A stretch of 64,000 bases of DNA from Sphingopyxis sp. (GTDB lineage Bacteria; Pseudomonadota; Alphaproteobacteria; Sphingomonadales; Sphingomonadaceae). Numbering within the stretch: the stretch's first letter is position 1; each line of letters begins with the position of its first letter. The DNA lies in contig NZ_JAOZVW010000033.1 of the NCBI RefSeq assembly GCF_025869345.1, positions 1 to 64,000 on the forward strand, written 5' to 3'. The notes under the pieces were generated by a model. The model was not told the origin of the DNA, did no database searches, and saw only the letters and a list, made by a program, of their open reading frames with translations. A program made the translations under genes and the position numbers. Below are positions 39,499 through 55,403 of this stretch, in pieces.

Positions 39499-39541
39499 AC
39501 TGCGGGGCGGCGGCTGGTTGGCCGCCGCCGCTCGTCCTGCT

Positions 39542-39841: not shown

Positions 39842-39993
39842 TATCTTCCCCCTTTACTCCGACACATACGCCGTGGCCCCTGCCCCGACGCCGTAGCGGA
39901 AGGTCGCATGTTTTCCGCCGAATAGGAAGCCCGGGCCGAAACCGGGGGAAGCGTGTTGCAAAAAGCAGGGCGGACGCCGACATAGGCGGCGCC

Positions 39994-40482
39994 ATGTCCT
40001 ATGCCCTGTCCTTCACCGCCACCGATCCCGCCGCGCTCTGGGCCGAGGCCGCCGAAGCCGCCGAAGCCCTCGTCGCCGGCGAGCCCGACGGCATCGCGAA
40101 CATGGCGAATATCGCGGCGCTGATCTGGCAGGCGATCCCCGATCTCAACTGGGCGGGCTTCTACCGCTTCGACGGCACCGAACTCGTCCTCGGCCCCTTC
40201 CAGGGCAAGGCCGCGTGCATCCGCATCGCGCTCGACAAGGGCGTCTGCGGCGCGGCGGCGCGGCTTCGCGAGACCCAGCGCGTCGAGGATGTCTTCGCCT
40301 TTCCGGGCCACATCGCCTGCGACGCCGACAGCCGCAGCGAACTGGTCGTGCCGATCGTCGCGGACGGGCGGCTGATCGGCGTGCTCGACCTCGATAGCCC
40401 GCACCCGTCGCGCTTCACCGCCGAGGATCAGGCGGGCGCCGAGGCGCTGGTCGCAAGGATCGCCGCCGCGCTGGCGGTCTGA
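39994..40482 (+). CDS. msrC: Free methionine-(R)-sulfoxide reductase
   Basis: A 162-residue GAF-fold enzyme. Cys75, Cys85 and Cys109 have the same spacing as the three cysteines of the E. coli enzyme (GPFQGKAACIRI, KGVCGAA, HIACDADSRSE). It reduces free methionine-R-sulfoxide with thioredoxin in the cytoplasm. A tandem 15-base repeat (CTGACCCAAATTGG twice) sits on its stop codon. Confidence 0.92.
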   Translation: MSYALSFTATDPAALWAEAAEAAEALVAGEPDGIANMANIAALIWQAIPDLNWAGFYRFDGTELVLGPFQGKAACIRIALDKGVCGAAARLRETQRVEDVFAFPGHIACDADSRSELVVPIVADGRLIGVLDLDSPHPSRFTAEDQAGAEALVARIAAALAV

Positions 40483-41652: not shown

Positions 41653-42207
41653 ATGCGTAAATTCACCAGCTTCGCCACCGCGACGGCGATCATCCTGTCC
41701 TCGGTGGCCGCGGTTCCCGCCGAAGCGCGCGGCCGCTATGGCCATGGCGGCTGGGGTTATCGCGACCGCGATCATATCAGCACCGGCGAGGTGATCGGCG
41801 GCCTGCTGGTCCTCGGCACCATCGCCGCGGTGATCGGCGCCGCGAGCAAGGAAAAGGCCCAGCCCCGCGACCGCGACTACCCCTATGAGCCGCCCTATCG
41901 CGAACCGCGCCAGGATGCGCCGAACTACGAACCGCAGGGCAATGACGACGGCGGCGCCTATGGCAGGGGCACCACCGAGGTTCGCCCCTATGGAAACGGC
42001 GAGGCCGAAGCCCGCGCCTCCGACGCGTGCAGTTGGGCGGTCGAGGGCGAGATGGGTGACGATGCGCGTGTCGACAGCATCACCGGCACCGAACCGAACA
42101 ATGGCGGCTGGTATGTGACCGGCACCGCCTCGCGACTCGGCGGCGAAGTGCAGAGCTTCGGCTGCAGCTATCGAAACGGCCGGGTCGTCGACGTCAGTTT
42201 CGGTTAG
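41653..42207 (+). CDS. Small exported protein, paralogue of the one at 55481
   Basis: A 184-residue protein with signal peptide (MRKFTSFATATAIILSSVAAVPAEA). It has the pattern ISTGEVIGGLLVLGTIAAVIG, an Arg/Tyr/Pro-rich linker, a C-terminal domain with SDACSWAVEGEMGDDARVDS and the ending FGCSYRNGRVVDVSFG. The first and last blocks match the protein at 55481, so these are paralogues. Function unknown; probably periplasmic or envelope-associated. GGTTCAGC lies upstream, as it does for the paralogue. Confidence 0.75.
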   Translation: MRKFTSFATATAIILSSVAAVPAEARGRYGHGGWGYRDRDHISTGEVIGGLLVLGTIAAVIGAASKEKAQPRDRDYPYEPPYREPRQDAPNYEPQGNDDGGAYGRGTTEVRPYGNGEAEARASDACSWAVEGEMGDDARVDSITGTEPNNGGWYVTGTASRLGGEVQSFGCSYRNGRVVDVSFG

Positions 42208-42383
42208 GATCGAAACCGATCCATATCTTCGTCATTCCCGCGAACCCGAGACAAGCGGCGTTATAAATCGGCCGTGGCCGGGTCTGTAGGTGCCGTTGAC
42301 CAAATCAAGGATGTCCATGAGCGAACCGCGAAGCCCTTGCGTGAGGATGCAGCAGCCACCTCAACATAGAGGCCGGGGGGCCG

Positions 42384-43946
42384 TCAGTTCGCCCTTGGGC
42401 GGATGAGGTCAAGTCTCCGCGTCCACGGGTCGCCGCCAGATCGCGCGACGCCGTCCGACGCGAAATCCATGACCTCGCCGGGGTTAAAACGTGGCCAGTC
42501 CGTTAGGCGCGGGCCGTTCGGGTTGCCGCTTTTCACGAAATTGACCACATAGCCGTTGATCGTGCGCGCCATGGCGCGGTCGGTCGCGGTCGTCGCCGGG
42601 CCGTATTTGGTCGCGACGGTGTCCAGGAAGAAGGGAATGTCGCTCGCGTGCGCCGCGCCCTTCGACCCGGCCCGCGATTGTTCGGCGACATAGGAAAAGC
42701 GGTAGTGATAGGCGAGCGCCCCCGCCGCCGCGACGCGTCCGGCGACATAGCGCGCCGGCTCGATCATGAAGCGGTCGCCCCCGATCTTCAGCATCAGGTC
42801 GAGAAAAGGGGCATCGCCGGCGGGATCGTATAGCGCGCGTGCGCTGGCGGCTTCGGACCCGAAAATCGCGAACAGATCGTCCTTCGAAGCGGCGGGCACG
42901 AAGCCGATGTCGGCGCTGGTCGCGCCGATCATCACCGGCACAGGTGCCTGCGCGCCGCGATCGAACATCGCCTCGACGCTGCCGTTCAGCGTCACGCCGT
43001 CGTTGAACGGCCCCGACCAGGTCGGCGCGGGCGACGGCGGCGCGAACAGGCTGGCGAGGTTCAGCCCCGCGACGATGCGATCGGCGGGCAGGCCGCGCAG
43101 CGCCGCCAGCGCGGATGCGTCCGTCCCCTCGACCCCGACGCTCTTGGCGAAATTGAGCCCGATCGTCTCGGCCGAGGGCGCGCCGGGCAGGTCGCGCGCC
43201 AGTTCGCGCTGCTGGCTGGCGGTGCGCCCGCCGCCCGACAGCACGATCGCGCCGCGGAACAGGCCGCGCGTCGCGGGCGCACCGAGCATGTCGAGCACCG
43301 ACATACCGCCCGCCGATTCGCCCATGATCGTCACGCGGCCGGGATCGCCGCCGAACGCGGCGATATTGTCGTGGGTCCAGCGCAGCGCGGCCTGCTGATC
43401 CATCAGCCCCCAATTGCCGACCGGCCCCTCGCCCGCCGCGCTGAGCGCCGGATGGGCGAAGAAGCCGAAGCGGCCGAGCCGATAGTTGAAGCTGACGAAG
43501 ACGACCCCCGCGCGCGCGAAGGCGGCCCCGTCATAAACGTCAGGCGACGAGCCGCCGTTGACGAAACCGCCGCCGTAAATCCAGAACAGCACGGGCAATT
43601 TCTTGCCCTTTGCATCCGCCGGCGCCCAGACGTTGACGGTCAGGCAATCCTCCGACGGCGCGGTCCCCAGCGGCGCGGCGTCGCTGGGAAACGGCAATTG
43701 CATGCAGTCATGGCCGAAGCTGGTCGCATCGCGAATGCCCGCCCACGGCGCGACCGGCTGCGGCGCGCGCCAGCGCAGCGGGCCGACCGGCGGCGCCGCG
43801 AAGGGAATGCCGCGAAAGGTCGCGACCCCCGCTGCGGCCGTTCCGGCGACGCGGCCCCCCGTCACCTCGGCGACCGGACCCGCGACCGTCTGCGCGGCCG
43901 CGGGCACGGCGGCGGCGAACAATGCAGCGGCGACGAATATCCTCAT
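42384..43946 (-). CDS. Exported type-B carboxylesterase
   Basis: A 520-residue alpha/beta-hydrolase with signal peptide (MRIFVAAALFAAAVPAAAQ). The nucleophile is Ser211 in GESAGGMSV; EDCLTVNVWAP and FWIYGGGFVNGG (oxyanion hole) are diagnostic, and the catalytic His is probably in AAHASDIPFF. It hydrolyses ester bonds, perhaps removing acyl groups from a glycoside. It follows the TonB receptor by 37 bases on the same strand and is probably in its operon. GGGGAGAAG before MRIF supports this start over an upstream TTG. Confidence 0.9.
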   Translation of the reverse strand: MRIFVAAALFAAAVPAAAQTVAGPVAEVTGGRVAGTAAAGVATFRGIPFAAPPVGPLRWRAPQPVAPWAGIRDATSFGHDCMQLPFPSDAAPLGTAPSEDCLTVNVWAPADAKGKKLPVLFWIYGGGFVNGGSSPDVYDGAAFARAGVVFVSFNYRLGRFGFFAHPALSAAGEGPVGNWGLMDQQAALRWTHDNIAAFGGDPGRVTIMGESAGGMSVLDMLGAPATRGLFRGAIVLSGGGRTASQQRELARDLPGAPSAETIGLNFAKSVGVEGTDASALAALRGLPADRIVAGLNLASLFAPPSPAPTWSGPFNDGVTLNGSVEAMFDRGAQAPVPVMIGATSADIGFVPAASKDDLFAIFGSEAASARALYDPAGDAPFLDLMLKIGGDRFMIEPARYVAGRVAAAGALAYHYRFSYVAEQSRAGSKGAAHASDIPFFLDTVATKYGPATTATDRAMARTINGYVVNFVKSGNPNGPRLTDWPRFNPGEVMDFASDGVARSGGDPWTRRLDLIRPRAN

Positions 43947-43983
43947 GCTTCTTCTCCCCAACTGCGCTGTCTGCCTGTTCGCC

Positions 43984-46197
43984 TTAGAACTTCACCCCTG
44001 CGCGGACGCCATAGGTACGCGGGTCGGCAAGATAGGCGGAACTGCTATATTGCGCCGACGCCCCCTGCAGGGTGATCACATTCTCCAGATTCTTGACGAA
44101 CCCCTGCACGAAGAAACGATCGTCGGGTGCCCGATAGGTCAGCGTCAGATCGGTCTTGTGATAGCTGGGGTTGCGGAACACCACCGGAACCGCGACGTCG
44201 GACAGCAGATAGGAGTCGCTGACGCGAACGCGCGCACCGAACTCGACACGGCTGCCGCCGCCGAGTTCCTGCGTGAAGGTATAGCCCGCCGACGCCGTGA
44301 TGGTCGGCGAACGATCGAGGCGGACGCCCGCGTAATCGATCGCCGGAACCGGGCGGAACGACGTATAGCGCGCCTTCAGCCAGTTGACCGAGACGTCGAA
44401 ACGATGCGCCGGATGCGGTGACAGCACGGCCTCCAGCTCGACGCCGTCGACCTTCGCCGCGCCGGCGTTGGTCGTCACCTGGCAGGGACCGCCGCAGATG
44501 GTCGACGAATAGCTGAGCTGCATTCCCTTATAGTCGTAATGGAACAGCGAACCGTTCAGCCGCAGCGCGCCGTCGGCGAAGCGCCCCTTGATGCCCGCCT
44601 CATACGCGGTGATCGTTTCGGGATCGTAATAGAGCGCCTCGGCGGGCAGCGAACAGCCGGTCCCGGTTCCGATCTCGCACCCGTCGTTGAAACCGCCCGC
44701 CTTGTAGCCCGTCGAAACCGACGCATAGAGCAATGTGTTGCCGAGGTCATAGTCGAGCCCCGCGCGCCACGTCACCTTGCTGAAGGTCCGGCGCGCATTG
44801 TTCTGTTGCAGCGGAAGGATGCCGATCGGAGCGGGATATTCGAGGATCGTCTGGCCGACACGCGACTTGAGATCGTGCGAATAGCGGATGCCGCCGGTGA
44901 ATTTCAGGTCGGGCACCAGTTCATAGGTGAACTGGCCGAACACCCCCTTCGATTCCGAAATCGTCGGGTCCTGCGGAAAACCGTAGCGGATCACACCAGC
45001 CGGCGTTCCCGCCGGAAAGATCGCCATGGGCGGATCGATGAGATAGGCGCCGATGCCCGACTTTTCCTTGAAGTAATAGCCGCCGACCTGGCCCGTGAAG
45101 GCCCCGCCGTTGTCATAAGCGAAGCGCAGTTCCTGCGAATTCTGCCAATAATGGCCATCGAAAATGCCGCGCACGGCCTTCGGAAGGAAGGGCGACAGGT
45201 CCTGCGGCCCCTGCTCGTGCCGCGTCATTTCGCGATAGCTGCCAAGGTAAGTCATGGTGACCGGGCCGAACCCCCAGGTCAGTTCGCCCATGATGCCCCA
45301 TGTGTCGTTGTCGAGGAAGGATTCGACACCGTCGTTATAATCGCGCGTCCGCTGAAGCGTCGAACCGATGTCCTTGTAGACTGGGCTGGTCGTGCCCGCC
45401 GCGAAGGGCCGATTGAAGAAATTGGTCAGCCGTACGGTGTTCGCCGGATGCCCCTCGATCTTGCTATAATCGCCGCGCAGCAGCAACGTCACGTCGGGTC
45501 CGAAATCGATCAGGGCCGACAGGCGGCCCGACAGGTTCTTCTTGCCGGGATTGAGCTTGAAGGGCGATATCGGGGCCGGGTTGATATAGGAATCGCGGCG
45601 GTCGTAATTGACCGCGCCGCGCAGCGCGAAGCCGGGCGCGACCGGCACGTTGAGCATCGCGGTCGCCTGAACGGTACCGAAATTGCCGTAGGTCGCGTCG
45701 GCCGAGGCCGCGAAATGGTCGACGGGGCGCGCCGAGATGACATGAACCACGCCCGCGGTCGAGTTGCGGCCGAACAGCGTCCCTTGCGGGCCGCGCAGCA
45801 CTTCGACGCGCTCGAGATCGAAGAAGCTGACCTCCTGCGCCTGCGGGCGTGCGATATAGATGCCGTCGAGAAGGAATGCCGCCGACGGATCGCCCTTTTC
45901 GGTGCCGTCGCGGCTGGTGACGCCGCGGATCGTGATCTGAAGCCCGTTGCCGCGGTCGATCGACAGGTTGGGGACGAGGTCGGCAAGCTGGGTCGGGTTG
46001 CTGACGCCCGCGTCGCGCAGGCCTTCGCCGCCGATGGCGGTCAGTGCGATCGGCGTCTTGGATGCCAGCGACTGGGTGCGCGTCGCGGTGACGACGATGT
46101 CGCCTTCCTGCGGCTTGATATCGGTATCCTGTGCGAAGGCGGGGGTGGCAAGCAGCGCCGCCGAGACGAAAAGCTGAATCCGAAAGCGATTGGTCAT
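43984..46197 (-). CDS. TonB-dependent outer-membrane receptor
   Basis: A 737-residue receptor with signal peptide (RIQLFVSAALLATPAFA). The TonB box region is GDIVVTATRTQ, followed by the plug domain with DGIYIARPQ and VEVLRGPQGTLFGRNSTAG, then the beta-barrel ending in GVRAGVKF. It imports a substrate across the outer membrane using TonB energy. Two LacI-type operators lie upstream, and its neighbours are sugar enzymes, so the substrate is probably a glycoside or glycan fragment, not a siderophore. Confidence 0.95.
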   Translation of the reverse strand: MTNRFRIQLFVSAALLATPAFAQDTDIKPQEGDIVVTATRTQSLASKTPIALTAIGGEGLRDAGVSNPTQLADLVPNLSIDRGNGLQITIRGVTSRDGTEKGDPSAAFLLDGIYIARPQAQEVSFFDLERVEVLRGPQGTLFGRNSTAGVVHVISARPVDHFAASADATYGNFGTVQATAMLNVPVAPGFALRGAVNYDRRDSYINPAPISPFKLNPGKKNLSGRLSALIDFGPDVTLLLRGDYSKIEGHPANTVRLTNFFNRPFAAGTTSPVYKDIGSTLQRTRDYNDGVESFLDNDTWGIMGELTWGFGPVTMTYLGSYREMTRHEQGPQDLSPFLPKAVRGIFDGHYWQNSQELRFAYDNGGAFTGQVGGYYFKEKSGIGAYLIDPPMAIFPAGTPAGVIRYGFPQDPTISESKGVFGQFTYELVPDLKFTGGIRYSHDLKSRVGQTILEYPAPIGILPLQQNNARRTFSKVTWRAGLDYDLGNTLLYASVSTGYKAGGFNDGCEIGTGTGCSLPAEALYYDPETITAYEAGIKGRFADGALRLNGSLFHYDYKGMQLSYSSTICGGPCQVTTNAGAAKVDGVELEAVLSPHPAHRFDVSVNWLKARYTSFRPVPAIDYAGVRLDRSPTITASAGYTFTQELGGGSRVEFGARVRVSDSYLLSDVAVPVVFRNPSYHKTDLTLTYRAPDDRFFVQGFVKNLENVITLQGASAQYSSSAYLADPRTYGVRAGVKF

Positions 46198-46218
46198 TGT
46201 CCTCTCCCTGTTATATTT

Positions 46219-46232
46219 TGAACTCGATTACA
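46219..46232. promoter_or_regulatory. LacI-type operator, weak copy, before the TonB receptor
   Basis: TGAACTCGATTACA keeps the right half-site CGATTACA and 4 of 6 bases of the left half of the consensus TGTAATCGATTACA. It begins 22 bases upstream of the receptor start. Confidence 0.5.
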
Positions 46233-46275
46233 TCAGAGTTTTTCAATCTTATTATTCGCCAATATCGTGGAGTCA

Positions 46276-46289
46276 AGTAATCGATTACA
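46276..46289. promoter_or_regulatory. LacI-type operator before the TonB receptor
   Basis: AGTAATCGATTACA matches 13 of 14 bases of the palindrome TGTAATCGATTACA, 79 bases upstream of the receptor start. A central CG is typical of LacI-family sites. Confidence 0.75.
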
Positions 46290-46352
46290 TTTTGCATCGA
46301 CATATGGCCTCTCGATGGGGAATGCGGCTGGCCTCATCGGGCCGGAACCGGC

Positions 46353-47375
46353 TCAGCTCCTCTCCTTCCCGCCGGCGAAATTGTCGAACGCCCGATCGGT
46401 GACGCGAATGATATGATCGGCGATGAAACGGGCCCCTTCGCGTGCGCCATCCTCGGGATGCTTCAGGCAGCATTCCCACTCGAGCACCGCCCAGCCGGGG
46501 AAATCATATTGGGCCATCTTCGAGAAGATGGTGGGGAAATCGATCTGGCCGTCGCCGAGCGAGCGGAAGCGGCCCGGGCGGTCGATCCAGTCCTGATAGC
46601 CGCCATAGACGCCCGAGCGGCCGTTCGGGCGGAACTCGGCATCCTTCGCATGGAAGGCCTTGATGCGGTCGTGGTAGAGATCGATGAACGCCAGATAGTC
46701 GAGTTGTTGCAACAGCAGGTGGCTGGGATCGTAGAGGATGTTGGCGCGCCTATGCCCGTCGACCGCGTCCAGAAAGCGTTCGAAGGTCGCGCCGTCGTGC
46801 AGATCCTCACCCGGATGAATCTCATAGGCGACGTCGACCCCGACGTCGTCGAAGGCGTCGAGGATCGGGCGCCAGCGGCGCGCAAGTTCGGCGAACGCCT
46901 CCTCGATCATTCCGGCCGGGCGCTGCGGCCAGGGATAGAAATTCGCCCAGGCGAGCGCGCCCGAAAAGGTGACGTGCGTATCGAGGCCAAGGTTGCGGCT
47001 CGCCTTTGCCGCGAGGTGCAACTGTTCGGTCGCCCATTGCTGCCGCGCCTCGGGCCTGCCGTGCAGATGCGCGGGCGCGAAGGCATCGAACAGCCGGTCC
47101 TGCGCGGGATCGACGGCGATCAACTGACCCTGCAAATGAGTCGAAAGTTCGGTGATGCACAGGCCGTGCGCCGCCACCGTGCCGAGCAGTTCGTCGCAAT
47201 AGGCGGCACTTTCAGCCGCCAGCACGAGATCGACCAGCCGCCCGCCGGTCGGAAGCTGGAGCCCCTTGTAGCCGAGCCCGGCCGCCCAGCGCGCCATGCC
47301 GTCGAGGCTGTCGAACGGCGGCGCATCGCCTTCGAACTGCGCGAGGAAGATGGCCGGACCTTTGATCGTTCGCAT
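46353..47375 (-). CDS. Sugar phosphate isomerase/epimerase-like TIM-barrel protein
   Basis: A 340-residue AP-endonuclease-2 type TIM barrel without a signal peptide. The expected metal ligands are the Glu of VAYEIHPGE, the Asp of ILYDPSH, the His of KAFHAKD and the Glu of VLEWE. Such proteins isomerise, epimerise or cleave sugars and 3-keto sugars. The start MRTIKGP follows AAAGG. It lies 24 bases after the Gfo/Idh/MocA gene, in the MFS-led operon. Confidence 0.9.
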   Translation of the reverse strand: MRTIKGPAIFLAQFEGDAPPFDSLDGMARWAAGLGYKGLQLPTGGRLVDLVLAAESAAYCDELLGTVAAHGLCITELSTHLQGQLIAVDPAQDRLFDAFAPAHLHGRPEARQQWATEQLHLAAKASRNLGLDTHVTFSGALAWANFYPWPQRPAGMIEEAFAELARRWRPILDAFDDVGVDVAYEIHPGEDLHDGATFERFLDAVDGHRRANILYDPSHLLLQQLDYLAFIDLYHDRIKAFHAKDAEFRPNGRSGVYGGYQDWIDRPGRFRSLGDGQIDFPTIFSKMAQYDFPGWAVLEWECCLKHPEDGAREGARFIADHIIRVTDRAFDNFAGGKERS

Positions 47376-47398
47376 GAAAAACCTTTCGCGGGGAGAAA

Positions 47399-48592
47399 TC
47401 AGGGGTGTGGGCCGGCATCTTCGACGGGTTCCCACGCGGCGCCCTGGGCCCAGGAGCGCAGCGCGGCGTCGACGAACAGCAATCCGCGCACGCCCTCCTC
47501 GATCCCGCAGAGCGGCGTTTGCGCGACGGGGGTCGCCGCGCGGATCGCGTGAGCGAAATCACGATAGATGGTCGCAAATGCCTCGATAAACCCTTCGGGA
47601 TGCCCGGCCGGGAGACGCGTCGCCGCGGTTGCCGCCGGCCCCAGATAGGGCGAACCGGCACTCAGCACCTCGTCGGGGCGGTCGGGCCAGCATAGACGAA
47701 GGTGCTGGCTGTCGGCGTGCGACCAGGACAGACCGCCGCGCTCGCCCCAGATCGAGAGCCGCAAATCGTTGCGCGCGCCCGCCGCAACCTGCGTCGCCGC
47801 CACCAGTCCGCGCGCGCCGTCGGCAAAGCGCAGCAGCAAGGTCGCATCATCGTCGCGGAGGCGACCCGGCACGACCGACGCGAGATCGGCGAGCAGATGC
47901 TCGATCCGGTCGCCCGCCACATATTCAGCGAGGTTCAGCGCGTGGACGCCGATGTCCGAAATGCAGCCGCCGGCGCCGGTCTGTGCGGGATCGGTGCGCC
48001 AGCCGGCCTGCCTGTTGCCGCCCTGCTCGACCGGATCGGCGAGCCAGCCCTGCGGATATTCGACATGGACGCGGCGGATGCGGCCGAAATCGCCCCGCGC
48101 CACCCGCTCGCGCGCCTCGCGGATCAGCGGGTAGCCGGTGTAGGTATAGGTGACGGCATATAGCGCGTCCGACGCCGCGACATGGCGTCGCAACTCCAGC
48201 GCCTCGGCCAGCGTCGCGGTCGCGGGCTTGTCGCTGATGACGTGAACCCCGGCGGCCAGCGCTGCGGCGGCGATCGGCAGATGGGTGTCGTTCGGGGTCG
48301 CGATCGCGACGAAATCGATGCCGTCGGGCCGTGCGCGCTCCGCCGCGAGCATCGTCGCGACGTCGGGATAGGCGCGGTCGGGGTCGATGCCATAGCCAAC
48401 CGCCGCCGCCCGCGAACGCTCATGGTCGCGGCTGAACACGCCCGCGCGCAGGCGGGCGAGCCCGTCGAGCTCCGCCGCCATCCGGTGCACCGGCCCGATG
48501 AACGAACCGGGGCCGCCGCCAACCATCGCCATGGCAAGGGGCGCCCTCGAAAGGGGAGGCATAACGGAGGGAGGGGTATCCGAACCCGTCAT
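47399..48592 (-). CDS. Gfo/Idh/MocA-family oxidoreductase
   Basis: A 397-residue NAD(P)-dependent sugar oxidoreductase. The Rossmann motif is AMVGGGPGSFIGPVHR (about 22-37). The usual EKP catalytic motif reads DKP in VISDKPATATLAEA, and the C-terminal domain carries GGCISDIGVHALNL, with the conserved Asp and His. It probably oxidises or reduces a sugar or keto-sugar in the cytoplasm. Its start overlaps the MFS stop (ATGA). Confidence 0.92.
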   Translation of the reverse strand: MTGSDTPPSVMPPLSRAPLAMAMVGGGPGSFIGPVHRMAAELDGLARLRAGVFSRDHERSRAAAVGYGIDPDRAYPDVATMLAAERARPDGIDFVAIATPNDTHLPIAAAALAAGVHVISDKPATATLAEALELRRHVAASDALYAVTYTYTGYPLIREARERVARGDFGRIRRVHVEYPQGWLADPVEQGGNRQAGWRTDPAQTGAGGCISDIGVHALNLAEYVAGDRIEHLLADLASVVPGRLRDDDATLLLRFADGARGLVAATQVAAGARNDLRLSIWGERGGLSWSHADSQHLRLCWPDRPDEVLSAGSPYLGPAATAATRLPAGHPEGFIEAFATIYRDFAHAIRAATPVAQTPLCGIEEGVRGLLFVDAALRSWAQGAAWEPVEDAGPHP

Positions 48593-50106
48593 GCCTCCCC
48601 CCGCGTCGCCGCCAGCGTCACCGGCGCATAGCCGCCACGCGAGCGGAAGAAGAGGATCAGCGCGAGATAGATGAGGAGCATCAGCACCGGCAGCAGGGCG
48701 ACCTCGCGCAGCGCGCCCTTCTTGCCTTCGACGACGACCGTCTCGATCGCCTGCTTCTCGGCCGCGGGCGCCTCCGCGACCGCTGCGGCGTCGAGCGCGC
48801 GATAGGAGCCGAACACGCCCTGCTTGCCGTCCGCCAGATAGATGTCGGCGAGCCGCGTCTCGTGCGCTCGGTCATAGGCGGCGAGCCCGGCGGCGGTCGA
48901 GCGGTCCTGAATCGTGCCGAGCAGGCTGGCCCCGACGATGCCCGCGGCCAGCATCCCCGCGCCCGCCATCACGTTCACCGTCACCGCGCCGCCGCGCGGG
49001 AAGCGTTCCGATGCGACCGCCAGGCTGGTGCCCCAGAAGAAGCTCTTGCCGATGCCATAGAGGGTCGCGGCCAGCAGCAGGGCCGCGCCGTTGGCGCCCG
49101 CCATCCAGAACAGGCCGATCGCGGCGAGCGCCGACGCGGCGGCGAGCGTGCCGAGCGGAGTCGCGACCCGCACGATCGCCCCCGCGAACAACCGGATGAC
49201 GAAGACGATCGCGGCGGTATAGACGAGCACCCACCCGGCCTCGATCCCCCAGCGCGCCATCTCGGGCTCCATCAGCGAGACGATCCAGCTATCGGTGCTG
49301 AGCTCGGTGATCGCGAGCGGGATCATCACGAGGACGAGGATGATGTAGAGCGGATGCCCCGCCGAGCGGGCATAGACGCCATAGACGGCGGTCAGCGCCG
49401 CGATGGCGGAGACGATCGCCCAGCCCGGCAGACCGGCGACGCGGCCGATCTCCATGCACATCAGCGACAGGATCACCAGAGCGCTGAGGAAGCCCGCTTC
49501 CTTGAGCATCTCGCGATAGGAGACGCCCGCCGCCACGCGCTCGCTGACCGGAAAGCGCTGACCGATCAGCGCGATCGCATAAATGAGGACGGGAACCGCC
49601 ATGATCGCGGTCTTGACGCGCCAGTCGACCGCCCCGCCGAGCGCGATCGCGAACAGGCCGCCCAGCATCAGCCCGAGCGGCCAGGCCGCGTGCAGCCGGT
49701 TGAGCCAGCGCGGCTTGTCCTCGTGATAGAGGGTCGCGATCAGCGGATTGGCGGCCGCCTCGACCGCGCCGTTGCCCAGCGCCATGATGAAGGTGCCGAT
49801 ATAGAGCGGCCAATAGCCGCTCGCGGTCACCAATATGCCGAGGCCCACGATATGGCAGGCGGCGGCAAAGCCGAAGGTGCGGCGAAAGCCGATGCGGTCG
49901 ATCACAAGGCTGAGCAGGACGATGGTGATCGCGAAGGGCCACAGGCCGACGCCGAGCAATTCGCCCTTCTCGGTCTCCGAAAGCCCGAAGGCGACGCCCC
50001 ATTCGTCGACGACCATCGCACGCAGCACGAAGCAGAAGGAGGTCGCGGTGATCGCGGCAAAGGAAATGCCGAAAAGCCGACGCCGCGAATCGCTGGACCC
50101 GTTCAT
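48589..50106 (-). CDS. MFS transporter, probable sugar or glycoside permease
   Basis: A 505-residue major facilitator with 12 helices. Motif A-like DRIGFRRTFGF lies after helix 2. A long hydrophilic insert (about residues 405-465, RAHETRLADIYLADGK onward) precedes the last helix, unusual for MFS permeases. It should move the sugar from periplasm to cytoplasm. GAGGGAGAGG lies just before the ATG, and a LacI-type operator lies 18 bases upstream. Confidence 0.9.
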   Translation of the reverse strand: MNGSSDSRRRLFGISFAAITATSFCFVLRAMVVDEWGVAFGLSETEKGELLGVGLWPFAITIVLLSLVIDRIGFRRTFGFAAACHIVGLGILVTASGYWPLYIGTFIMALGNGAVEAAANPLIATLYHEDKPRWLNRLHAAWPLGLMLGGLFAIALGGAVDWRVKTAIMAVPVLIYAIALIGQRFPVSERVAAGVSYREMLKEAGFLSALVILSLMCMEIGRVAGLPGWAIVSAIAALTAVYGVYARSAGHPLYIILVLVMIPLAITELSTDSWIVSLMEPEMARWGIEAGWVLVYTAAIVFVIRLFAGAIVRVATPLGTLAAASALAAIGLFWMAGANGAALLLAATLYGIGKSFFWGTSLAVASERFPRGGAVTVNVMAGAGMLAAGIVGASLLGTIQDRSTAAGLAAYDRAHETRLADIYLADGKQGVFGSYRALDAAAVAEAPAAEKQAIETVVVEGKKGALREVALLPVLMLLIYLALILFFRSRGGYAPVTLAATRGEA

Positions 50107-50123
50107 ACCCCTCTCCCTCGTTA

Positions 50124-50137
50124 TGTAATGGATTACA
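50124..50137. promoter_or_regulatory. LacI-type operator between the MFS and lacI-type genes
   Basis: TGTAATGGATTACA, with arms TGTAAT and ATTACA fully inverted, 18 bases upstream of the MFS start and 80 bases upstream of the regulator's chosen start. It would serve both divergent genes. Confidence 0.8.
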
Positions 50138-50216
50138 TTATGCACAGCGGCGTTGTATCGCAAGGCCAATAATATTAATGCCCACAAGGCTTTTCACGAA
50201 GAGAGACATTTTTCCG

Positions 50217-51221
50217 ATGACGACGATTGCAGATGTCGCGCGCGCCGCCGGGGTTTCCACCGCCACCGTGTCGCGCGCGCTGAGCAATCCCGACGCGGTC
50301 AGCGAACCCCGGCGCAGCCTGGTCCTGCAAGCCGCCAAGGCACTGGGATATGCCCCCAATTATGCGGCGAAGAGCCTGCGGACGACCCGGTCGCAGCGCA
50401 TCATCCTGACCGTTCCCGACATTTCGAATCCCTTTTTCTCCGCCGTCATCCGCGGCGCCGAGGAAGCGGCGCTCGCGGCGCGCTATTCGCTGCTGATCGG
50501 CGACACCCACCATGACGCCGAGCGCGAGGAATATTATGCGTCGATGCTATCGCGGCGCGAAGCCGACGGCATGATCTTCCTCGGCCATCGCCTGGCGCCG
50601 ACCGCGGTCGCGCTGGTCGCGAAAGAGGGCGCCGAAGCGCCGATCGTCAACGGCTGCGAATTCGAGCCGGGGCTGAACGTATCGAGCGTCCACATCGCCA
50701 ATGCCGTCGCGGCGGCCGAAGCGGTGCAGCACCTTTACGACCTGGGGCATCGCCGCATCGGCGTGATTACCGGCCCGCTGCTGAGCCCGATCAGCCGCGA
50801 TCGCCTGAGCGGCGTCCAGGGCGCCGCCGCCGGACGGCGATTGTGGAACGAGGTGCTGGTGCGGACCGGCGACTTTTCGGTCGATTCGGGCGAACAGCTC
50901 GCGCACGAATTGCTGAGCGAGGACAATCCGCCGACCGCCCTCTTCTGCTTCAGCGACGAAATGGCGATCGGCGCGATCGCGGCGCTGCGCGACCGCGGGC
51001 TCGATTGCCCGCGCGACGTGTCGGTGGTCGGCTTCGACGACATCCGCTATGCCCGCGCCTTCCACCCAGCGCTGACCACGGTCAGCCAGCCCAAGGAAGC
51101 GATCGGGCGCAAGGCGGTCGAGATGCTGCTCGATATTCTCGAGAAGAGGGCGCAGGGGCTGTCGTCGATCACCCTGCCCCACCAGCTCGTCGTCCGCGCC
51201 AGCACCGCCCCGCCGCCTTAG
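50217..51221 (+). CDS. LacI-family transcriptional repressor
   Basis: A 334-residue regulator. The N-terminal helix-turn-helix is MTTIADVARAAGVSTATVSR, with hinge NYAAKSLRTTRS. The ligand-binding domain follows (about 60-334), with NPFFSAVIRGAEEAA and FSDEMAIGAIAALRDRGL. The start at 50217 fits the family; an in-frame ATG at 50178 would add 13 residues. Operator copies around the island mark it as the local repressor; the inducer is unknown. Confidence 0.93.
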   Translation: MTTIADVARAAGVSTATVSRALSNPDAVSEPRRSLVLQAAKALGYAPNYAAKSLRTTRSQRIILTVPDISNPFFSAVIRGAEEAALAARYSLLIGDTHHDAEREEYYASMLSRREADGMIFLGHRLAPTAVALVAKEGAEAPIVNGCEFEPGLNVSSVHIANAVAAAEAVQHLYDLGHRRIGVITGPLLSPISRDRLSGVQGAAAGRRLWNEVLVRTGDFSVDSGEQLAHELLSEDNPPTALFCFSDEMAIGAIAALRDRGLDCPRDVSVVGFDDIRYARAFHPALTTVSQPKEAIGRKAVEMLLDILEKRAQGLSSITLPHQLVVRASTAPPP

Positions 51222-51233
51222 GTCATTCGGCCT

Positions 51234-51270
51234 CGTCATTGCGAGCGGAGCGAAGCAATCCAGAGCGGTT
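51234..51270. repeat. Half copy of the CGTCATTGCGAG repeat
   Basis: CGTCATTGCGAGCGGAGCGA followed by AGCAATCCAGAGCGGTTTAA matches the left halves of the copies at 364-457 and 20925-20999. Just one arm is present, between the converging lacI-type and GMC genes. Confidence 0.75.
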
Positions 51271-51274
51271 TAAC

Positions 51275-52963
51275 TCAGAGCTGCCCCGCCTTCATCCGTT
51301 CGACCGCATGGTTGGCGGCGCGCGCCGTCAGCGCCATATAGGTCAGCGACGGATTCTGCGCCGCCGTCGACGCCATGCACGCACCGTCGGTGACGAACAG
51401 ATTGGCGACCTCGTGCGACTGGTTGAAGCCGTTGAGGTAGGAGGTCTTGGGATCGCGTCCCATGCGCGCCGTGCCCATCTCGTGGATCGCAAGGCCGCCG
51501 GGCGGGATCGCGGTGCGGATCGCCTGGACGCCGAGCGCGCCCCCCGCGGTCAGCATCGCCACCGCCTCCTTCGATATATCCTCGGCCATCAATTTCTCGT
51601 TCGCGCCCCATTCGAACCGCGTGTTGAGGATGGGAATCCCCCATTTGTCCTTCTTCTGCGGATCGAGGCTCAGCCGGTTGTTGTAATAGGGGAGGCATTC
51701 GCCGAAGCCCGCGATATAGATGAACCACGGACCCGGCTCGCGCAGCGACTGTTTCAGCGGCGCGCCGAACCCCGGCGTCATCGCCCCGCGCGTCCAGTTG
51801 GCCCGCGCGGCGGCGCCCTGCAGGCCATAGCCGCGCAGGAAGGGCGCGTCCTTCTTCGCCACATTGCGGAAACGCGGCATGTACAGGCCGGCCGGGCGGT
51901 TGCCGATCGGATGGCTGTCGAGCATTCCCGGCACGATGCCGAAGGCGCCGCCGGTCATCAGATGGTCCATCAGATAATGGCCGAGAACCCCGCTGCTGTT
52001 GCCGAGGCCGTCCGGATAATCCTCGCTCGTCGAATTGAGCAGGATCTGCGTGGAACCCAGCGTCGAGGCGTTGAGGAAGACGATCCGCCCGCGATAGGTG
52101 GTGCGCGTCCCCTTGTTCGCGTCGATCACGCGCACACCCGAAACCTTGCGCGTCGCGGGGTCGTGATCGAGCCCCTCGACGATCGCATCGGTGACGATGG
52201 TGAGATTGCCCGTCGCCTGCGCCGCGGGAAGCGTCGAGCTGATCGAGCTGAAATAGGAGCCGGTCGAGCAGCCGCGCTGGCACGGCCCGCAATAATGGCA
52301 CGCCGCGCGGTCGCCCAGATCCTGCGTCAGGATCGCCGACGGCGCGATCATCAGCCGGCGGTCGGGATAGGTTTTCGCGATTCCGTCGGCGACATGCGCT
52401 TCGCAGCGATTGAGCGGCATCCCGGGCTGGAAACGACCGATCGGCGCGGTGGGGGCGTCATAGTCCGACTGCCCCGACACGCCGATGAAGCGTTCGACAT
52501 GGTCGTACCACGGCTGGATATCCTCATAGCGGATCGGCCAGTCGACGCCGTGGCCGTCCTCGGCATTTTCGGTGAAGTTGATCGGCCCCAGCCGCGGCGT
52601 GACCCGCCCCCAGGTGATCGAGCGGCCGCCGAGATGATAGCCGCGAATCCAGCTGAACGGATTTTCCGCATCCTGCCCATAGGGGTGCGCGCTGTCGTCC
52701 ACGAAGAACTGCTCGGTCGCCTCGCCAAAGGCATAGCAGGTGCGCTGGATCGGATAATCGCGCGCATAAAGATGGCGGTCGCCCAGGTTGCGGAAGGGAA
52801 ATTCCCAGTCGGCCTTGTGCTCGCCGACATAATCCTCCGGCGTGATCGACCGCCCGCGCTCGATGAGCAGGACCTTCAGTCCCTTTTCGGTCAGTTCCTT
52901 TGCCGCCCAGCCGCCCGAAATGCCCGAGCCGACGACGATCGCATCGAAATCCTGATTCGACAT
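51275..52963 (-). CDS. GMC-family FAD sugar dehydrogenase, large subunit
   Basis: A 562-residue flavoprotein. The FAD motif GSGISGGWAAKEL lies near residues 12-24. Cys222, Cys225, Cys228 and Cys232 (CHYCGPCQRGC) lie where the bacterial FAD glucose dehydrogenases hold a [3Fe-4S] cluster. The catalytic region is HEMGTARMG with Asn in QNPSLTY. No signal peptide: such subunits are exported with their Tat-carrying small subunit, encoded 14 bases upstream. It resembles glucoside 3-dehydrogenase and FAD glucose dehydrogenase alpha subunits. Confidence 0.9.
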   Translation of the reverse strand: MSNQDFDAIVVGSGISGGWAAKELTEKGLKVLLIERGRSITPEDYVGEHKADWEFPFRNLGDRHLYARDYPIQRTCYAFGEATEQFFVDDSAHPYGQDAENPFSWIRGYHLGGRSITWGRVTPRLGPINFTENAEDGHGVDWPIRYEDIQPWYDHVERFIGVSGQSDYDAPTAPIGRFQPGMPLNRCEAHVADGIAKTYPDRRLMIAPSAILTQDLGDRAACHYCGPCQRGCSTGSYFSSISSTLPAAQATGNLTIVTDAIVEGLDHDPATRKVSGVRVIDANKGTRTTYRGRIVFLNASTLGSTQILLNSTSEDYPDGLGNSSGVLGHYLMDHLMTGGAFGIVPGMLDSHPIGNRPAGLYMPRFRNVAKKDAPFLRGYGLQGAAARANWTRGAMTPGFGAPLKQSLREPGPWFIYIAGFGECLPYYNNRLSLDPQKKDKWGIPILNTRFEWGANEKLMAEDISKEAVAMLTAGGALGVQAIRTAIPPGGLAIHEMGTARMGRDPKTSYLNGFNQSHEVANLFVTDGACMASTAAQNPSLTYMALTARAANHAVERMKAGQL

Positions 52964-52977
52964 GATGATGCTCCCGC

Positions 52978-53598
52978 TTAGTAGGCGCTGAAAGGCGACA
53001 GCGAATAAAGGATGAAGGAATCGGCCCGGTCGCCCGGCTTGAACGGCGCGTCGGGCACATATTCGTTCGGGACCATGTCGAGCCGCAGCTCGACCGAGGC
53101 GCCGAGTTCGCTCGTATAATAGCCATAGACGGTCAGCCGCTTCATCAGCGCCGCAAAGGGCGTGCGCGCCCGGCCGCCAGCCGGCGCGGGCGCCGCCATC
53201 GCAGCCTCGGCAGCGGCAAGCTGTTCGCCGAACCAGCCGTTCTTCTGCGCGTCATCGAGGCCGGCGAACGGCCTGCCATATCGTGCCGCCGCGCCCTCGG
53301 CGAACGCCGCCATGCCGTCCATGAAGTTCGCCCGCTCGGCGGGATCGAACCAGTCGGAGATCATCATCTCGACAAAGGCCGGAACCCCGGCCGCCTTGGC
53401 GCCGCCGGTATCGGTCGCGGGGATGATCGTTTCGGCGACCTCGGCGATCAGCGCGCGCGTCGCTGCGGGCCAGGGATCGGCGGCGGCCACCGCGGCGCGT
53501 GCGGCCGGAGCCATCAGACTCACGCCAAGAAATGCGGCAAGTTTCAGCATGTCGCGACGGCTTGCAAAAACGCCGTCGGCAGTCGCACGGGGTGGCAT
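52978..53598 (-). CDS. Gluconate 2-dehydrogenase subunit 3-type small subunit with Tat leader
   Basis: A 206-residue protein with a Tat-like leader (SRRDMLKLAAFLGVSLMAPA). The family core is AEVAETIIPATDTGGAKAAGVPAFVEMM, and the C-terminal part carries FAALMKRLTVYGYYTSELG. This gamma-type subunit escorts the GMC subunit to the periplasm. GGGAGAGG lies just upstream of MPPRATADG, and a LacI-type operator begins 33 bases upstream. Confidence 0.92.
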   Translation of the reverse strand: MPPRATADGVFASRRDMLKLAAFLGVSLMAPAARAAVAAADPWPAATRALIAEVAETIIPATDTGGAKAAGVPAFVEMMISDWFDPAERANFMDGMAAFAEGAAARYGRPFAGLDDAQKNGWFGEQLAAAEAAMAAPAPAGGRARTPFAALMKRLTVYGYYTSELGASVELRLDMVPNEYVPDAPFKPGDRADSFILYSLSPFSAY

Positions 53599-53630
53599 TG
53601 ACCTCTCCCTCATTTCTGTTATGCCTTCGA

Positions 53631-53644
53631 CGTAATCGATTGCA
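53631..53644. promoter_or_regulatory. LacI-type operator before the dehydrogenase small subunit
   Basis: CGTAATCGATTGCA matches 12 of 14 bases of TGTAATCGATTACA and remains palindromic in its inner ten bases. It lies 33 bases upstream of the minus-strand start. Confidence 0.7.
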
Positions 53645-53706
53645 CATGTCCTTGCAAGATCATAATTACAAAGGTTCAAAAGAAGGATTTTATCCGAAAA
53701 ACCTCA

Positions 53707-53724
53707 TTTGTAATTGATTACAAA
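53707..53724. promoter_or_regulatory. LacI-type operator before the cytochrome c gene
   Basis: TTTGTAAT-TG-ATTACAAA has perfect 8-base inverted arms; its core matches 13 of 14 bases of TGTAATCGATTACA. With the site at 53631 it flanks the divergent promoter region. Confidence 0.8.
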
Positions 53725-53772
53725 TTTACGGAGATGCACAAGCATGAACCGTATGAAATGGAGAGAATGCCG

Positions 53773-54162
53773 ATGCTTCGGTTCGCTATCATCGCCCCGG
53801 TCGCCGCCGCCGCACTGAGCCTTGCGGCGGGCTCGCTCGCGCAGACACCGAAGGCGGCCCCCGATCTCGCCAAGGGCCGCACCGCCTTTCAGGCGTGCGC
53901 CGCCTGCCATTCCGACAAGCCCGGCGTCAAGCGCCTGGGCCCGAGCCTCGCCGGCCTGTTCGGCAAGCCCGCCGCGCAAGTGAAGGGCTTCACCTATTCG
54001 CCCGCGCTCGCCAAGGCGAAGCTGCGCTGGGACCGCAAGACGCTCGACAAGTTCATCGCGAGCCCCAAGTCGGTCGTTCCGGGCAATCGCATGACCTATC
54101 CGGGGGTGTCCGACCCGGCGAAGCGCGCCGCGATCGTCGATTATATCGAAAGCCTGCGCTGA
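53773..54162 (+). CDS. Periplasmic class I c-type cytochrome
   Basis: A 129-residue protein with signal peptide (MLRFAIIAPVAAAALSLAAG). Haem is held by CAACH (near residues 40-44), and the axial Met is probably in GNRMTYPGV. The family resembles mitochondrial-type cytochrome c (LGPSLAGLFGK). It probably accepts electrons from the GMC dehydrogenase. Earlier in-frame ATGs exist (53734, 53758, 53767); GGAGAG spaced seven bases before 53773 favours this start. Confidence 0.92.
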   Translation: MLRFAIIAPVAAAALSLAAGSLAQTPKAAPDLAKGRTAFQACAACHSDKPGVKRLGPSLAGLFGKPAAQVKGFTYSPALAKAKLRWDRKTLDKFIASPKSVVPGNRMTYPGVSDPAKRAAIVDYIESLR

Positions 54163-54215
54163 CGGCGCTTAGGGGAAAGCCCCGATCAATGGAAAATACA
54201 GGGATGGAAGAGGAT

Positions 54216-55223
54216 ATGAAGATGAAGGGTCGCCGCATCGCTCCACTCTTGATGATGTCGTCCGCGCTCGCCGCGGGAGGCGCCGCCGCGCACGACCATG
54301 GCGCACCGCATAAGGCGTCCGAGGCGGCACAGTGCCTTGGCCTGCCGGCCGAGAAGATCGCGATCCAGACCTACACCTTCGCGCCCGTACTCGCCGGCAT
54401 CCCTATCCCCGCGGAATGGGACACGCTGCCCGCAGGCGAAAAATTCGAGCGCCTCAAGCCTTTCTTCGCCAAGCTGGCCGGCGCCAAACCCGACCCCGCC
54501 CGCCTGGCCTCGGTGCTCAAGCAGATCGCCGACATGGGCTATCGCAATATCGAGGGGATGGACCTTATCGGCGGCAGCGATCCCGCCGCCTATGCCAAGC
54601 TGCTGAAGGACAACGGCCTGCAAGCCGTCGCCAGTCACGGCGCGCTCGACAAGACGAAATGGCCGACGCTGCTCGCCGAGGCGAAGGCGCGGGGCCAGCG
54701 CTTCATCGGCTCCGGCGGCTTTGGCGGACCGGGTCTCGACACGCTCGACCATGTCCTCGAAACCGCGCGCAACCTCAACGAACTGGGCGAAGCCGCGGCG
54801 GCCGAGGGACTGACCCTCTATGTCCACAACCACACCGGCGAGTTCGACAATCGCTTCCTCTATGATCATGGCGACGGCAAGCCGGTGATGACGAGCGCGT
54901 GGGAAATCGTCGCCGCGAATACCGATCCGCGTTTCGTCCAGTTCGAAATCGACGTCTTCTGGGCGCGGCTGGCGTTCAAGCCCGATCGCTTCGACGATCT
55001 GCTCGCCTTCCTCGAAAAATATCGCAGCCGCATCGCGCTCCTGCACATGAAGGATCTCGCGCCCAACGGCGCGGTTACCGACATGGGCAAGGGCACGACC
55101 GACTGGCGCCGCGTCATCGAGGCCGCCGGTCCGCAGATCGCCTATTATATCTATGAGTTCGATTTTCCGTCCGACCCCGCGAAAGCGGCGAAGATCGGAT
55201 TCGACTATTTGAGTTGCGGCTGA
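54216..55223 (+). CDS. Exported TIM-barrel sugar isomerase/lyase-like protein
   Basis: A 335-residue AP-endonuclease-2 type TIM barrel with a signal peptide (RRIAPLLMMSSALAAGGAAAH). Metal ligands expected in YVHNHTGEF, FVQFEIDVFWA, IALLHMKD and YYIYEFDFP. An exported member beside a periplasmic dehydrogenase could cleave or isomerise a 3-keto-glycoside before uptake; this is inference. Several in-frame ATGs precede; AGAGG supports 54216 or 54222. It is 53 bases after the cytochrome gene. Confidence 0.88.
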   Translation: MKMKGRRIAPLLMMSSALAAGGAAAHDHGAPHKASEAAQCLGLPAEKIAIQTYTFAPVLAGIPIPAEWDTLPAGEKFERLKPFFAKLAGAKPDPARLASVLKQIADMGYRNIEGMDLIGGSDPAAYAKLLKDNGLQAVASHGALDKTKWPTLLAEAKARGQRFIGSGGFGGPGLDTLDHVLETARNLNELGEAAAAEGLTLYVHNHTGEFDNRFLYDHGDGKPVMTSAWEIVAANTDPRFVQFEIDVFWARLAFKPDRFDDLLAFLEKYRSRIALLHMKDLAPNGAVTDMGKGTTDWRRVIEAAGPQIAYYIYEFDFPSDPAKAAKIGFDYLSCG

Positions 55224-55352
55224 CGAGAGCGCCGCGCACCAAATCAGCCTATGGCAAACAACGACCGTCCGCCTTGCCTCCCCCGGCCGGCGGCGAGGCG
55301 ATCCAATTGCCCGTCAGCGACGGCCTCATCGATCTTTGCCGGCGCGCCAAAA

Positions 55353-55403
55353 GCTGAACCCCGGCAAAACCAAGGCTGAACCGCAGATAAGCGGAGGGTT
55401 CAG
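55353..55403. repeat. Three GCTGAACC motifs spaced 22 bases apart
   Basis: GCTGAACC occurs at 55353-55360 and 55375-55382, and the inverted GGTTCAG at 55397-55403, each start 22 bases after the last (two helical turns). They lie 78-128 bases before the gene at 55481. A single GGTTCAGC is found at 41564-41571, upstream of the paralogous gene. Candidate regulator binding array. Confidence 0.45.

What the first reader, a model, noticed from the sequence alone, without database searches (positions are those of the whole stretch)
42384..55223. LacI-controlled island that looks like a periplasmic glycoside C3-oxidation and cleavage pathway
One island encodes a TonB receptor, exported esterase, GMC dehydrogenase with Tat small subunit and cytochrome c, an exported TIM-barrel protein, an MFS permease, a cytoplasmic TIM-barrel protein, a Gfo/Idh/MocA oxidoreductase and a LacI regulator. 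Known: GMC plus gluconate-2-dehydrogenase-subunit-3 pairs include glucoside 3-dehydrogenases, and AP-endonuclease-2 TIM barrels include enzymes acting on 3-keto-glycosides. No glycoside hydrolase or DUF1080 protein is present. Inference: an outer glycoside is oxidised, split without hydrolysis and imported. The exact combination may be undescribed.
Basis: partly seen in the sequence, partly recalled or inferred. Interest (0 to 1): 0.78.

Follow-up and report, generated by a model that had tools for sequence, protein, structure and literature searches.

The report
Non-hydrolytic glycoside cleavage gene island
A 13-kb block of ten apparently co-regulated genes should let a bacterium strip sugars off other molecules by oxidising and then eliminating them instead of using water, a recently described chemistry arranged here so that the cutting seems to happen outside the cell's inner membrane.

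Summary
Observation confirmed; interpretation supported. All ten genes are present. The cytoplasmic TIM barrel matches solved 2-hydroxy-3-keto-glucal hydratase AtHYD at 566 bits. The exported TIM barrel folds like the 3-keto-glucoside lyases 8tct, 8tcd and 8bvk and keeps AtOGE's metal and catalytic residues. The GMC protein keeps the active-site His/Asn and three 3Fe-4S cysteines. The island is a discrete insertion: a same-genus genome carries the block at 81% identity in other flanks, and 5 of 6 relatives examined have the empty site. Three of the genome's five GTAATNNATTAC sites lie in its three promoter regions. No DUF1080 hydrolase was found in this genome. What stands out is layout: dehydrogenase and lyase look exported, hydratase and reductase do not. 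That layout recurs in relatives with a GMC gene, so it is a variant, not a new kind. Substrate, site of cleavage and imported intermediate are inferred.

The parts
42384..43946 (-). exported type-B carboxylesterase (EST), leader MRIFVAAALFAAAVPAAAQ by eye
   Evidence: PF00135 340 bits; nearest solved structure fumonisin B1 esterase 8s6d, 263 bits; start
43984..46197 (-). TonB-dependent outer-membrane receptor (TBDR)
   Evidence: PF00593 and PF07715
46219..46289 (.). two LacI-type operator-like sites (46219-46232, two mismatches; 46276-46289) upstream of TBDR-EST
   Evidence: same region in L096
46353..47375 (-). cytoplasmic TIM barrel, 2-hydroxy-3-keto-glucal hydratase (HYD)
   Evidence: 8ro4 566 bits over 335 residues
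47399..48592 (-). Gfo/Idh/MocA oxidoreductase, probable 3-keto-glucose reductase (RED)
   Evidence: Pfam; within 6 kb of HYD in 71 of 80 HYD loci
48589..50106 (-). MFS permease, probable importer of the released sugar product
   Evidence: PF07690; start; substrate inferred
50124..50137 (.). LacI-type operator-like site TGTAATGGATTACA between MFS and LacI genes
50217..51221 (+). LacI-family regulator (start MTTIADVARAAG; longer start at 50178 possible)
   Evidence: PF00356, PF13377
51275..52963 (-). GMC flavoprotein, catalytic subunit of probable glycoside 3-dehydrogenase; H494, N537 and C222-x5-C228-x3-C232
   Evidence: PF05199/PF00732; alignment to fructose dehydrogenase large subunit
52978..53613 (-). 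Gluconate_2-dh3 small subunit with Tat motif (hitchhiker subunit, SUB3)
   Evidence: PF13618 98.6 bits; only match in the genome
53631..53722 (.). two LacI-type operator-like sites (53631-53644, two mismatches; 53709-53722) between SUB3 and cytochrome c genes
53734..54162 (+). exported mono-haem cytochrome c (CAACH)
   Evidence: PF00034
54216..55223 (+). exported TIM barrel, 3-keto-beta-glucopyranoside-1,2-lyase type (TIMX)
   Evidence: model pLDDT 89.1; Foldseek ranks 1-9 are 8tct, 3obe, 8tcd, 8tcr, 3l23, 8bvk; residues of AtOGE kept
42206..55350 (.). extent of the insertion relative to empty sites in relatives
   Evidence: in 5 of 6 relatives examined 42201-42205 and 55351-55355 lie within about 60-175 bp of each other

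Best explanation
The island encodes a complete beta-elimination pathway for (perhaps acylated) beta-glucosides, divided across the inner membrane. TBDR brings the substrate through the outer membrane and the esterase removes acyl groups. In the periplasm the GMC flavoprotein, exported with its Tat hitchhiker subunit and wired to the cytochrome c, oxidises C3 of the sugar; the exported metal-dependent TIM barrel then takes the C2 proton and expels the aglycone, leaving 2-hydroxy-3-keto-glucal. The MFS permease imports this product, the cytoplasmic hydratase adds water to give 3-keto-glucose, and the Gfo/Idh/MocA enzyme reduces it to glucose. LacI represses the island's operons until a pathway compound appears. 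Shown by sequence or model: gene families, residue conservation, leaders, operator placement, insertion. Inferred: substrates, activities, location of cleavage, the transported intermediate, LacI as binder of the sites.
For: HYD 566 bits to 8ro4 '2-hydroxy-3-keto-glucal hydratase'. TIMX model pLDDT 89.1, pTM 0.85; Foldseek ranks 1-9 are 8tct, 8tcd and 8tcr (titled 3-keto-beta-glucopyranoside-1,2-lyases), 8bvk (AtOGE) and 3obe and 3l23, whose titles give no tested function. AtOGE E39, H66, H132, H134, E161 and H189 align to identical residues in TIMX, and D163 and E233 to the invariant Asp and Glu of the same gap-free stretches. GMC keeps the catalytic His and Asn and C-x5-C-x3-C. The small subunit's family is a Tat hitchhiker in BcGDH. 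RED within 6 kb of HYD in 71 of 80 loci. Operators: 3 of 5 exact-core genome sites in the island's three promoter regions; L096 has sites with at most 2 mismatches in the same three regions. No PF06439 match in the 99.98% complete genome.
Against: TIMX is only 22-32% identical to the lyases outside its own clade that I aligned, sits on a long branch and has extra segments, so another 3-keto-sugar reaction is possible. One TIMX-clade relative (L103) lies in a CoA-ligase cluster without GMC or HYD. The GMC protein was not compared with GlycDH or LacA sequences. RED's best curated model is levoglucosan dehydrogenase at 109 bits, far under its cut-off of 650, so its substrate is open. Sphingomonas ERG5 keeps the core without an esterase in the 14.6 kb held, with another MFS type and with a DUF1080 gene. 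In G014 the esterase is split over two reading frames, so it may be dead there. One operator-like genome site falls inside an HD-domain ORF, and window shuffles reached up to 9 loose sites against 10 observed.
Confidence: 0.8

Rival explanations
1. Same pathway, but TIMX both eliminates and hydrates, so 3-keto-glucose, not the glucal, crosses the membrane, and HYD only scavenges leakage.
For: A Bacteroides lyase has hydration activity that an H275N change removes (PMC13273386, passage).
Against: A dedicated hydratase sits in the same operon as permease and reductase, and RED accompanies HYD in 71 of 80 loci.
Confidence: 0.3
2. TIMX is an epimerase or isomerase of 3-keto-sugars (like YcjR) and cleavage is done by an unlinked enzyme.
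For: AP_endonuc_2 barrels include 3-keto-glucoside 4-epimerase YcjR, 6wn6, rank 26 in Foldseek.
Against: The titled lyases and AtOGE are among ranks 1-9; the HNH motif with the catalytic His of AtOGE is kept; no PF06439 match in the genome.
Confidence: 0.08
3. The GMC complex oxidises a non-sugar or free-sugar hydroxyl (as fructose or glucose dehydrogenases do) mainly for respiration, and the other genes serve an unrelated cyclitol route.
For: Nearest solved GMC relatives are fructose and glucose dehydrogenases, about 105-112 bits; HYD and RED score weakly with inositol-enzyme models.
Against: HYD matches AtHYD at 566 bits against 63 bits for the IolE model; a lyase accompanies GMC in 22 of 24 GMC-bearing HYD loci.
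Confidence: 0.07
4. The esterase marks a detoxification or xenobiotic-ester cluster like the fumonisin (fum) cluster (recalled, not compared), with sugar genes incidental.
For: Best solved match of EST is fumonisin B1 esterase 8s6d, 263 bits.
Against: Carboxylesterases 7w1j and 1c7j score nearly as high (231 and 230 bits); the core without esterase recurs in Sphingomonas ERG5; the esterase is split over two frames in G014.
Confidence: 0.05

Closest known systems
Agrobacterium tumefaciens GlycDH-AtOGE-AtHYD-Gfo operon (PMC10628242)
   Same: Same four activities by family: flavin glycoside dehydrogenase with Tat partner (as named for Rhizobium GIN611), TIM-barrel beta-eliminase, TIM-barrel hydratase, Gfo oxidoreductase.
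   Different: AtOGE is 259 residues long, close to the bare barrel; here the lyase has a leader and extra segments and belongs to another clade. TonB receptor, esterase and MFS are added. Where AtOGE is located was not tested.
Caulobacter LacABC + DUF1080 lactose route (PMC9007349)
   Same: Periplasmic three-part dehydrogenase; that LacABC are GMC, cytochrome c and Gluconate_2-dh3 proteins is recalled.
   Different: Cleavage there is proposed to be by a DUF1080 3-ketoglycoside hydrolase; none was found in this genome. A Caulobacter vibrioides locus (L016) holds DUF1080 and an exported-looking lyase together with HYD and RED.
Bacteroidetes 3-keto-beta-glucopyranoside-1,2-lyases BT1/AL1 (PDB 8tct, 8tcd)
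   Same: Best structural match of TIMX.
   Different: 21-22% identity in the structural alignment; partner genes of those lyases were not examined.
C-glycoside eliminases (CGE, e.g. PuCGE)
   Different: PuCGE has a second subunit; no CGE-alpha or DUF6379 homologue among the window ORFs, so O-glycosides are likelier.

Membership tests
Four-step non-hydrolytic glycoside pathway (A. tumefaciens type) | hydratase of AtHYD family | tested here: met
   566 bits, 335 residues aligned
Four-step non-hydrolytic glycoside pathway (A. tumefaciens type) | TIM-barrel beta-eliminase with AtOGE metal ligands and catalytic His | tested here: met
   fold and residues
Four-step non-hydrolytic glycoside pathway (A. 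tumefaciens type) | FAD-dependent GMC glycoside 3-dehydrogenase with Tat partner | tested here: inconclusive
   family, His/Asn, cysteines and Tat subunit present; no GlycDH sequence was available to compare
Four-step non-hydrolytic glycoside pathway (A. tumefaciens type) | Gfo/Idh/MocA 3-keto-glucose reductase | tested here: inconclusive
   family and linkage to HYD; substrate not testable
Four-step non-hydrolytic glycoside pathway (A. tumefaciens type) | enzyme activities and intermediates | not testable with these tools
   needs assays
LacABC-DUF1080 3-ketoglycoside hydrolase route | LacABC-like three-part dehydrogenase | tested here: inconclusive
   GMC, PF13618 and cytochrome c genes adjacent; no LacABC sequence compared; Caulobacter rang for PF13618 as control
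LacABC-DUF1080 3-ketoglycoside hydrolase route | PF06439 (DUF1080) hydrolase | tested here: not met
   no match in the whole genome; Caulobacter rang as control
FAD-GDH/FDH type dehydrogenase complex | 3Fe-4S cysteines C-x5-C-x3-C and Tat hitchhiker subunit | tested here: met
   Tat motif by eye
FAD-GDH/FDH type dehydrogenase complex | membrane subunit with three haem c | tested here: not met
   the linked cytochrome has one CxxCH
C-glycoside eliminase (CGE) | second (DUF6379) subunit | tested here: not met
   no window ORF hit by the profile

The most novel reading that the evidence does not exclude
Bacteria with this layout carry out deglycosylation by beta-elimination outside the cytoplasm: the aglycone never enters the cell and the reactive 2-hydroxy-3-keto-glucal is itself the imported metabolite, through a dedicated MFS carrier; and the TIMX clade is a lyase type with its own cap segments, tuned to deacylated plant-type glucosides.
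Probability: 0.4. Interest if true: 0.58.

Novelty: new variant of a known kind. Interest (0 to 1): 0.43.

Why it matters
It offers a compact model, apparently under one regulator, in which the pathway from outer membrane to glucose can be tested at once in a genome where no competing DUF1080 hydrolase was found. If the compartment split is right, bacteria can break glycosidic bonds outside the cytoplasm without hydrolases, keep the aglycone out, and take up an unusual enone sugar. The lyase clade and its permease would be new biocatalysis tools.

Tried and rejected
GC content as a sign of foreign origin: island 0.660 against 0.670 for the rest of the window, no signal. A C-glycoside reading: the profiles for CGE alpha and DUF6379 found no window ORF. 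Substrate from the esterase: best solved match is fumonisin esterase but generic carboxylesterases score nearly as well, so no substrate is claimed. The TIMX-clade relative L103 suggested CoA-dependent acid chemistry (CoA ligase, enoyl-CoA hydratase, acyl-CoA dehydrogenase) but has no GMC or HYD in the 19.5 kb held, so this stayed a lead. Paper searches (one search was for dehydrogenase complexes): no listed title or abstract start concerned the compartment split, but only CC-licensed PMC papers are held, and Kastner 2024 (Angew. Chem.) and Nasseri 2024 (Nature) are not held, so this is weak evidence of novelty. Signal-peptide counts come from two home-made rules on the 40 lyase rows scoring 200 or more (29 in loci with a GMC gene, 11 without; several loci give two rows and some rows are close kin). 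The first rule called 22 of 29 exported and 1 of 11; the second, written after seeing the first one's misses and with a special search range for four TIMX-clade rows, called 23 of 29 and 4 of 11; together 29 of 29 and 4 of 11, one of the four (L072) lying before the likely start. The second rule called 1 of 85 HYD and 1 of 76 RED proteins exported, but also 0 of 36 GMC, 0 of 32 small subunits and 1 of 11 cytochromes; the window's small subunit and cytochrome do have leaders by eye, so the rule misses leaders that the profile covers.

Full report
What is there. Ten genes lie in 42384-55223. On the minus strand: type-B carboxylesterase (EST), TonB receptor (TBDR), TIM barrel (HYD), Gfo/Idh/MocA oxidoreductase (RED), MFS permease, GMC flavoprotein and Gluconate_2-dh3 subunit (SUB3). 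On the plus strand: LacI regulator, cytochrome c and a second TIM barrel (TIMX). Likely starts were chosen by eye and located. EST, cytochrome c and TIMX have leader-like N-termini and SUB3 a twin-arginine motif (by eye; for TIMX also by the rule). By that rule 1 of 85 HYD-type and 1 of 76 RED-type proteins carry a leader.

It is a unit and an insertion. blastn of the window against 19 kb of a same-genus genome (G014, L096) gives one block, 42420-55220 at 81.3%, and nothing else; all ten genes keep order and strand, but the esterase there is split over two frames, and a GH3 gene and a second LacI gene lie just outside the block. Of the 16 same-genus genomes in which the right-flank peptidase was found I took six; in five (L123, L124, L125, L126, L128) window positions 42201-42205 and 55351-55355 lie about 60-175 bp apart with no island match between; the sixth (L127) has no match to the left flank.

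One regulator. TGTAATNRATTACA-like sites (up to 3 mismatches) occur 10 times in the window, five places read on both strands, all inside the island; 100 shuffles gave a mean of 2.48 and a largest of 9. The core GTAATNNATTAC, exact, occurs at five places in the 4.0-Mb genome and three are in the island's promoter regions: before TBDR-EST, between MFS and LacI, and between SUB3 and cytochrome c. L096 has sites with at most 2 mismatches in the same three regions, L003 in two. These regions serve TBDR-EST, MFS-RED-HYD with LacI opposite, and SUB3-GMC with cytochrome-TIMX opposite, so transcription units follow compartments. Of the two other genome sites, one lies about 20 bp before a TonB receptor ORF on another contig (L102), the other inside an HD-domain ORF (L101). 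That this LacI binds the sites is inferred.

HYD. It matches PDB 8ro4 at 566 bits over 335 residues; one search gives that entry's title, AtHYD of A. tumefaciens. This is the strongest single functional assignment.

TIMX. By sequence the only solved relatives at E 0.001 are 8tcs, 8tcd, 3l23, 8tct and 3obe at about 30-38 bits. An AlphaFold2 model from 23 sequences has mean pLDDT 89.1, with residues 1-27 below 50. Foldseek ranks 8tct, 3obe, 8tcd/8tcr, 3l23 and 8bvk first, E 1.5e-14 to 1.9e-10; the titles of 8tct, 8tcd and 8tcr read 3-keto-beta-glucopyranoside-1,2-lyase, and 8bvk is AtOGE; AtHYD itself comes at rank 29. AtOGE's reported ligands and base (His132, Asp163, His189, Glu233; alternative site with His66, Glu39, Glu161; base His134) have counterparts H204, D246, H277, E314, H141, E113, E244 and H206 (numbering from 54216). 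Six of the eight were printed in the mapping; Asp163 and Glu233 follow from its gap-free continuation and the invariant columns. TIMX with L096, L003 and L103 forms its own clade, support 99/98, on a long branch, while deeper forks are weak; in the alignment only these four carry the extra segment after the first strand. At E of 1e-30 or better TIMX was found in 2 of 298 genomes of the family sample and 1 of 385 of the class sample, own genome included in both. In the 60-genome relatives search 11 matched at E 0.001, but only the own genome and G014 strongly.

Dehydrogenase. The GMC protein aligns over most of its length with fructose dehydrogenase (about 111 bits): its H494 stands at the His changed in 8k6j (H1147A), N537 at the Asn changed in 8xcn, and C222, C228 and C232 at a C-x5-C-x3-C, the spacing of BcGDH Cys212, Cys218 and Cys222 that bind 3Fe-4S (PMC6719666, passages). 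That paper describes the small subunit as a Tat hitchhiker. SUB3 is the only PF13618 match of the genome.

In these 80, RED lies within 6 kb in 71, a GMC gene within 11 kb in 24, a TIMX/OGE-type lyase in 31, DUF1080-type genes in 22; of the 24 GMC loci 22 have a lyase and 19 a DUF1080 gene, and all 24 have RED (profiles built, loci often cut by contig ends). Lyases in loci with GMC looked exported in 29 of 29 rows by one or other of two rules, others in 4 of 11 (Fisher p 1.8e-5); rows are related and the second rule was adjusted after the first, so this is descriptive. A leaderless lyase of a Rhizobium plasmid sits beside ABC-transporter genes and a second Gfo gene (L097); a second Gfo-type hit also accompanies the lyases of L026, L041, L053, L072 and L079. 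The split layout is therefore recurrent, not unique to this window. Distinctive are the TIMX clade, the esterase (1 of the 80 loci has one, L004), and the lack of PF06439 in the genome. G014 has three PF06439 matches on another contig and L003 one beside its lyase, so that lack is not a rule of the island.

Known background. PMC10628242 (sections 4, 7, 8 and passages) describes the Agrobacterium operon and the four steps. PMC9007349 (passages) proposes LacABC with DUF1080 in the Caulobacter periplasm. PMC13273386 (passages and references) states the four-step pathway and a Bacteroides lyase with hydration activity. Kastner 2024 and Nasseri 2024 were seen only as references. PMC10646112 (glycoside 3-oxidases, GMC) and PMC11239390 were seen only in the listing.

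Verdict. The pathway is known; this is a cleanly delimited, apparently single-regulator, periplasm-first variant with a divergent lyase. Which glycoside it serves is open.

Noticed in passing
39498-39993: A 496-bp stretch with a small membrane-protein-like ORF (by eye, minus strand) is absent from the same place in four relatives (L124, L125, L126, L128), whose matches join 39497 to 39994; no second copy in the own genome.
   Followed up: partly
L102 6057-6070 (own genome contig C18): A GTAATNNATTAC site lies about 20 bp before a TonB receptor ORF outside the island, a possible further member of the LacI regulon.
   Followed up: partly
L103 3432-12940 (G252): A TIMX-clade lyase sits in a cluster with TonB receptor, CoA ligase, enoyl-CoA hydratase, acyl-CoA dehydrogenase and LysR, without GMC or hydratase.
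   Followed up: partly
L098 2902-15880 (Novosphingobium sp. P6W plasmid pP6W1): TIM barrel plus DUF6379, Gfo, hydratase, MFS and GMC genes next to glycoside hydrolase genes: looks like a C-glycoside eliminase cluster in a sphingomonad.
   Followed up: no
L099 1237-11224 (Klebsiella pneumoniae plasmid pBS317-1.2): A hydratase, two Gfo genes, a sugar phosphate isomerase and transporter genes of the same pathway type lie on an IncR plasmid with IS5-type transposase genes on both sides.
   Followed up: no
L016 (Caulobacter vibrioides DSM 9893): DUF1080, LacI, exported-looking lyase, RED, HYD, cytochrome c, GMC and small subunit lie together, so Caulobacter may have the elimination route beside the proposed hydrolase.
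   Followed up: partly
L096 2586-4211 (G014): The esterase of the second copy of the island is split over two reading frames: sequence error or decayed gene.
   Followed up: no
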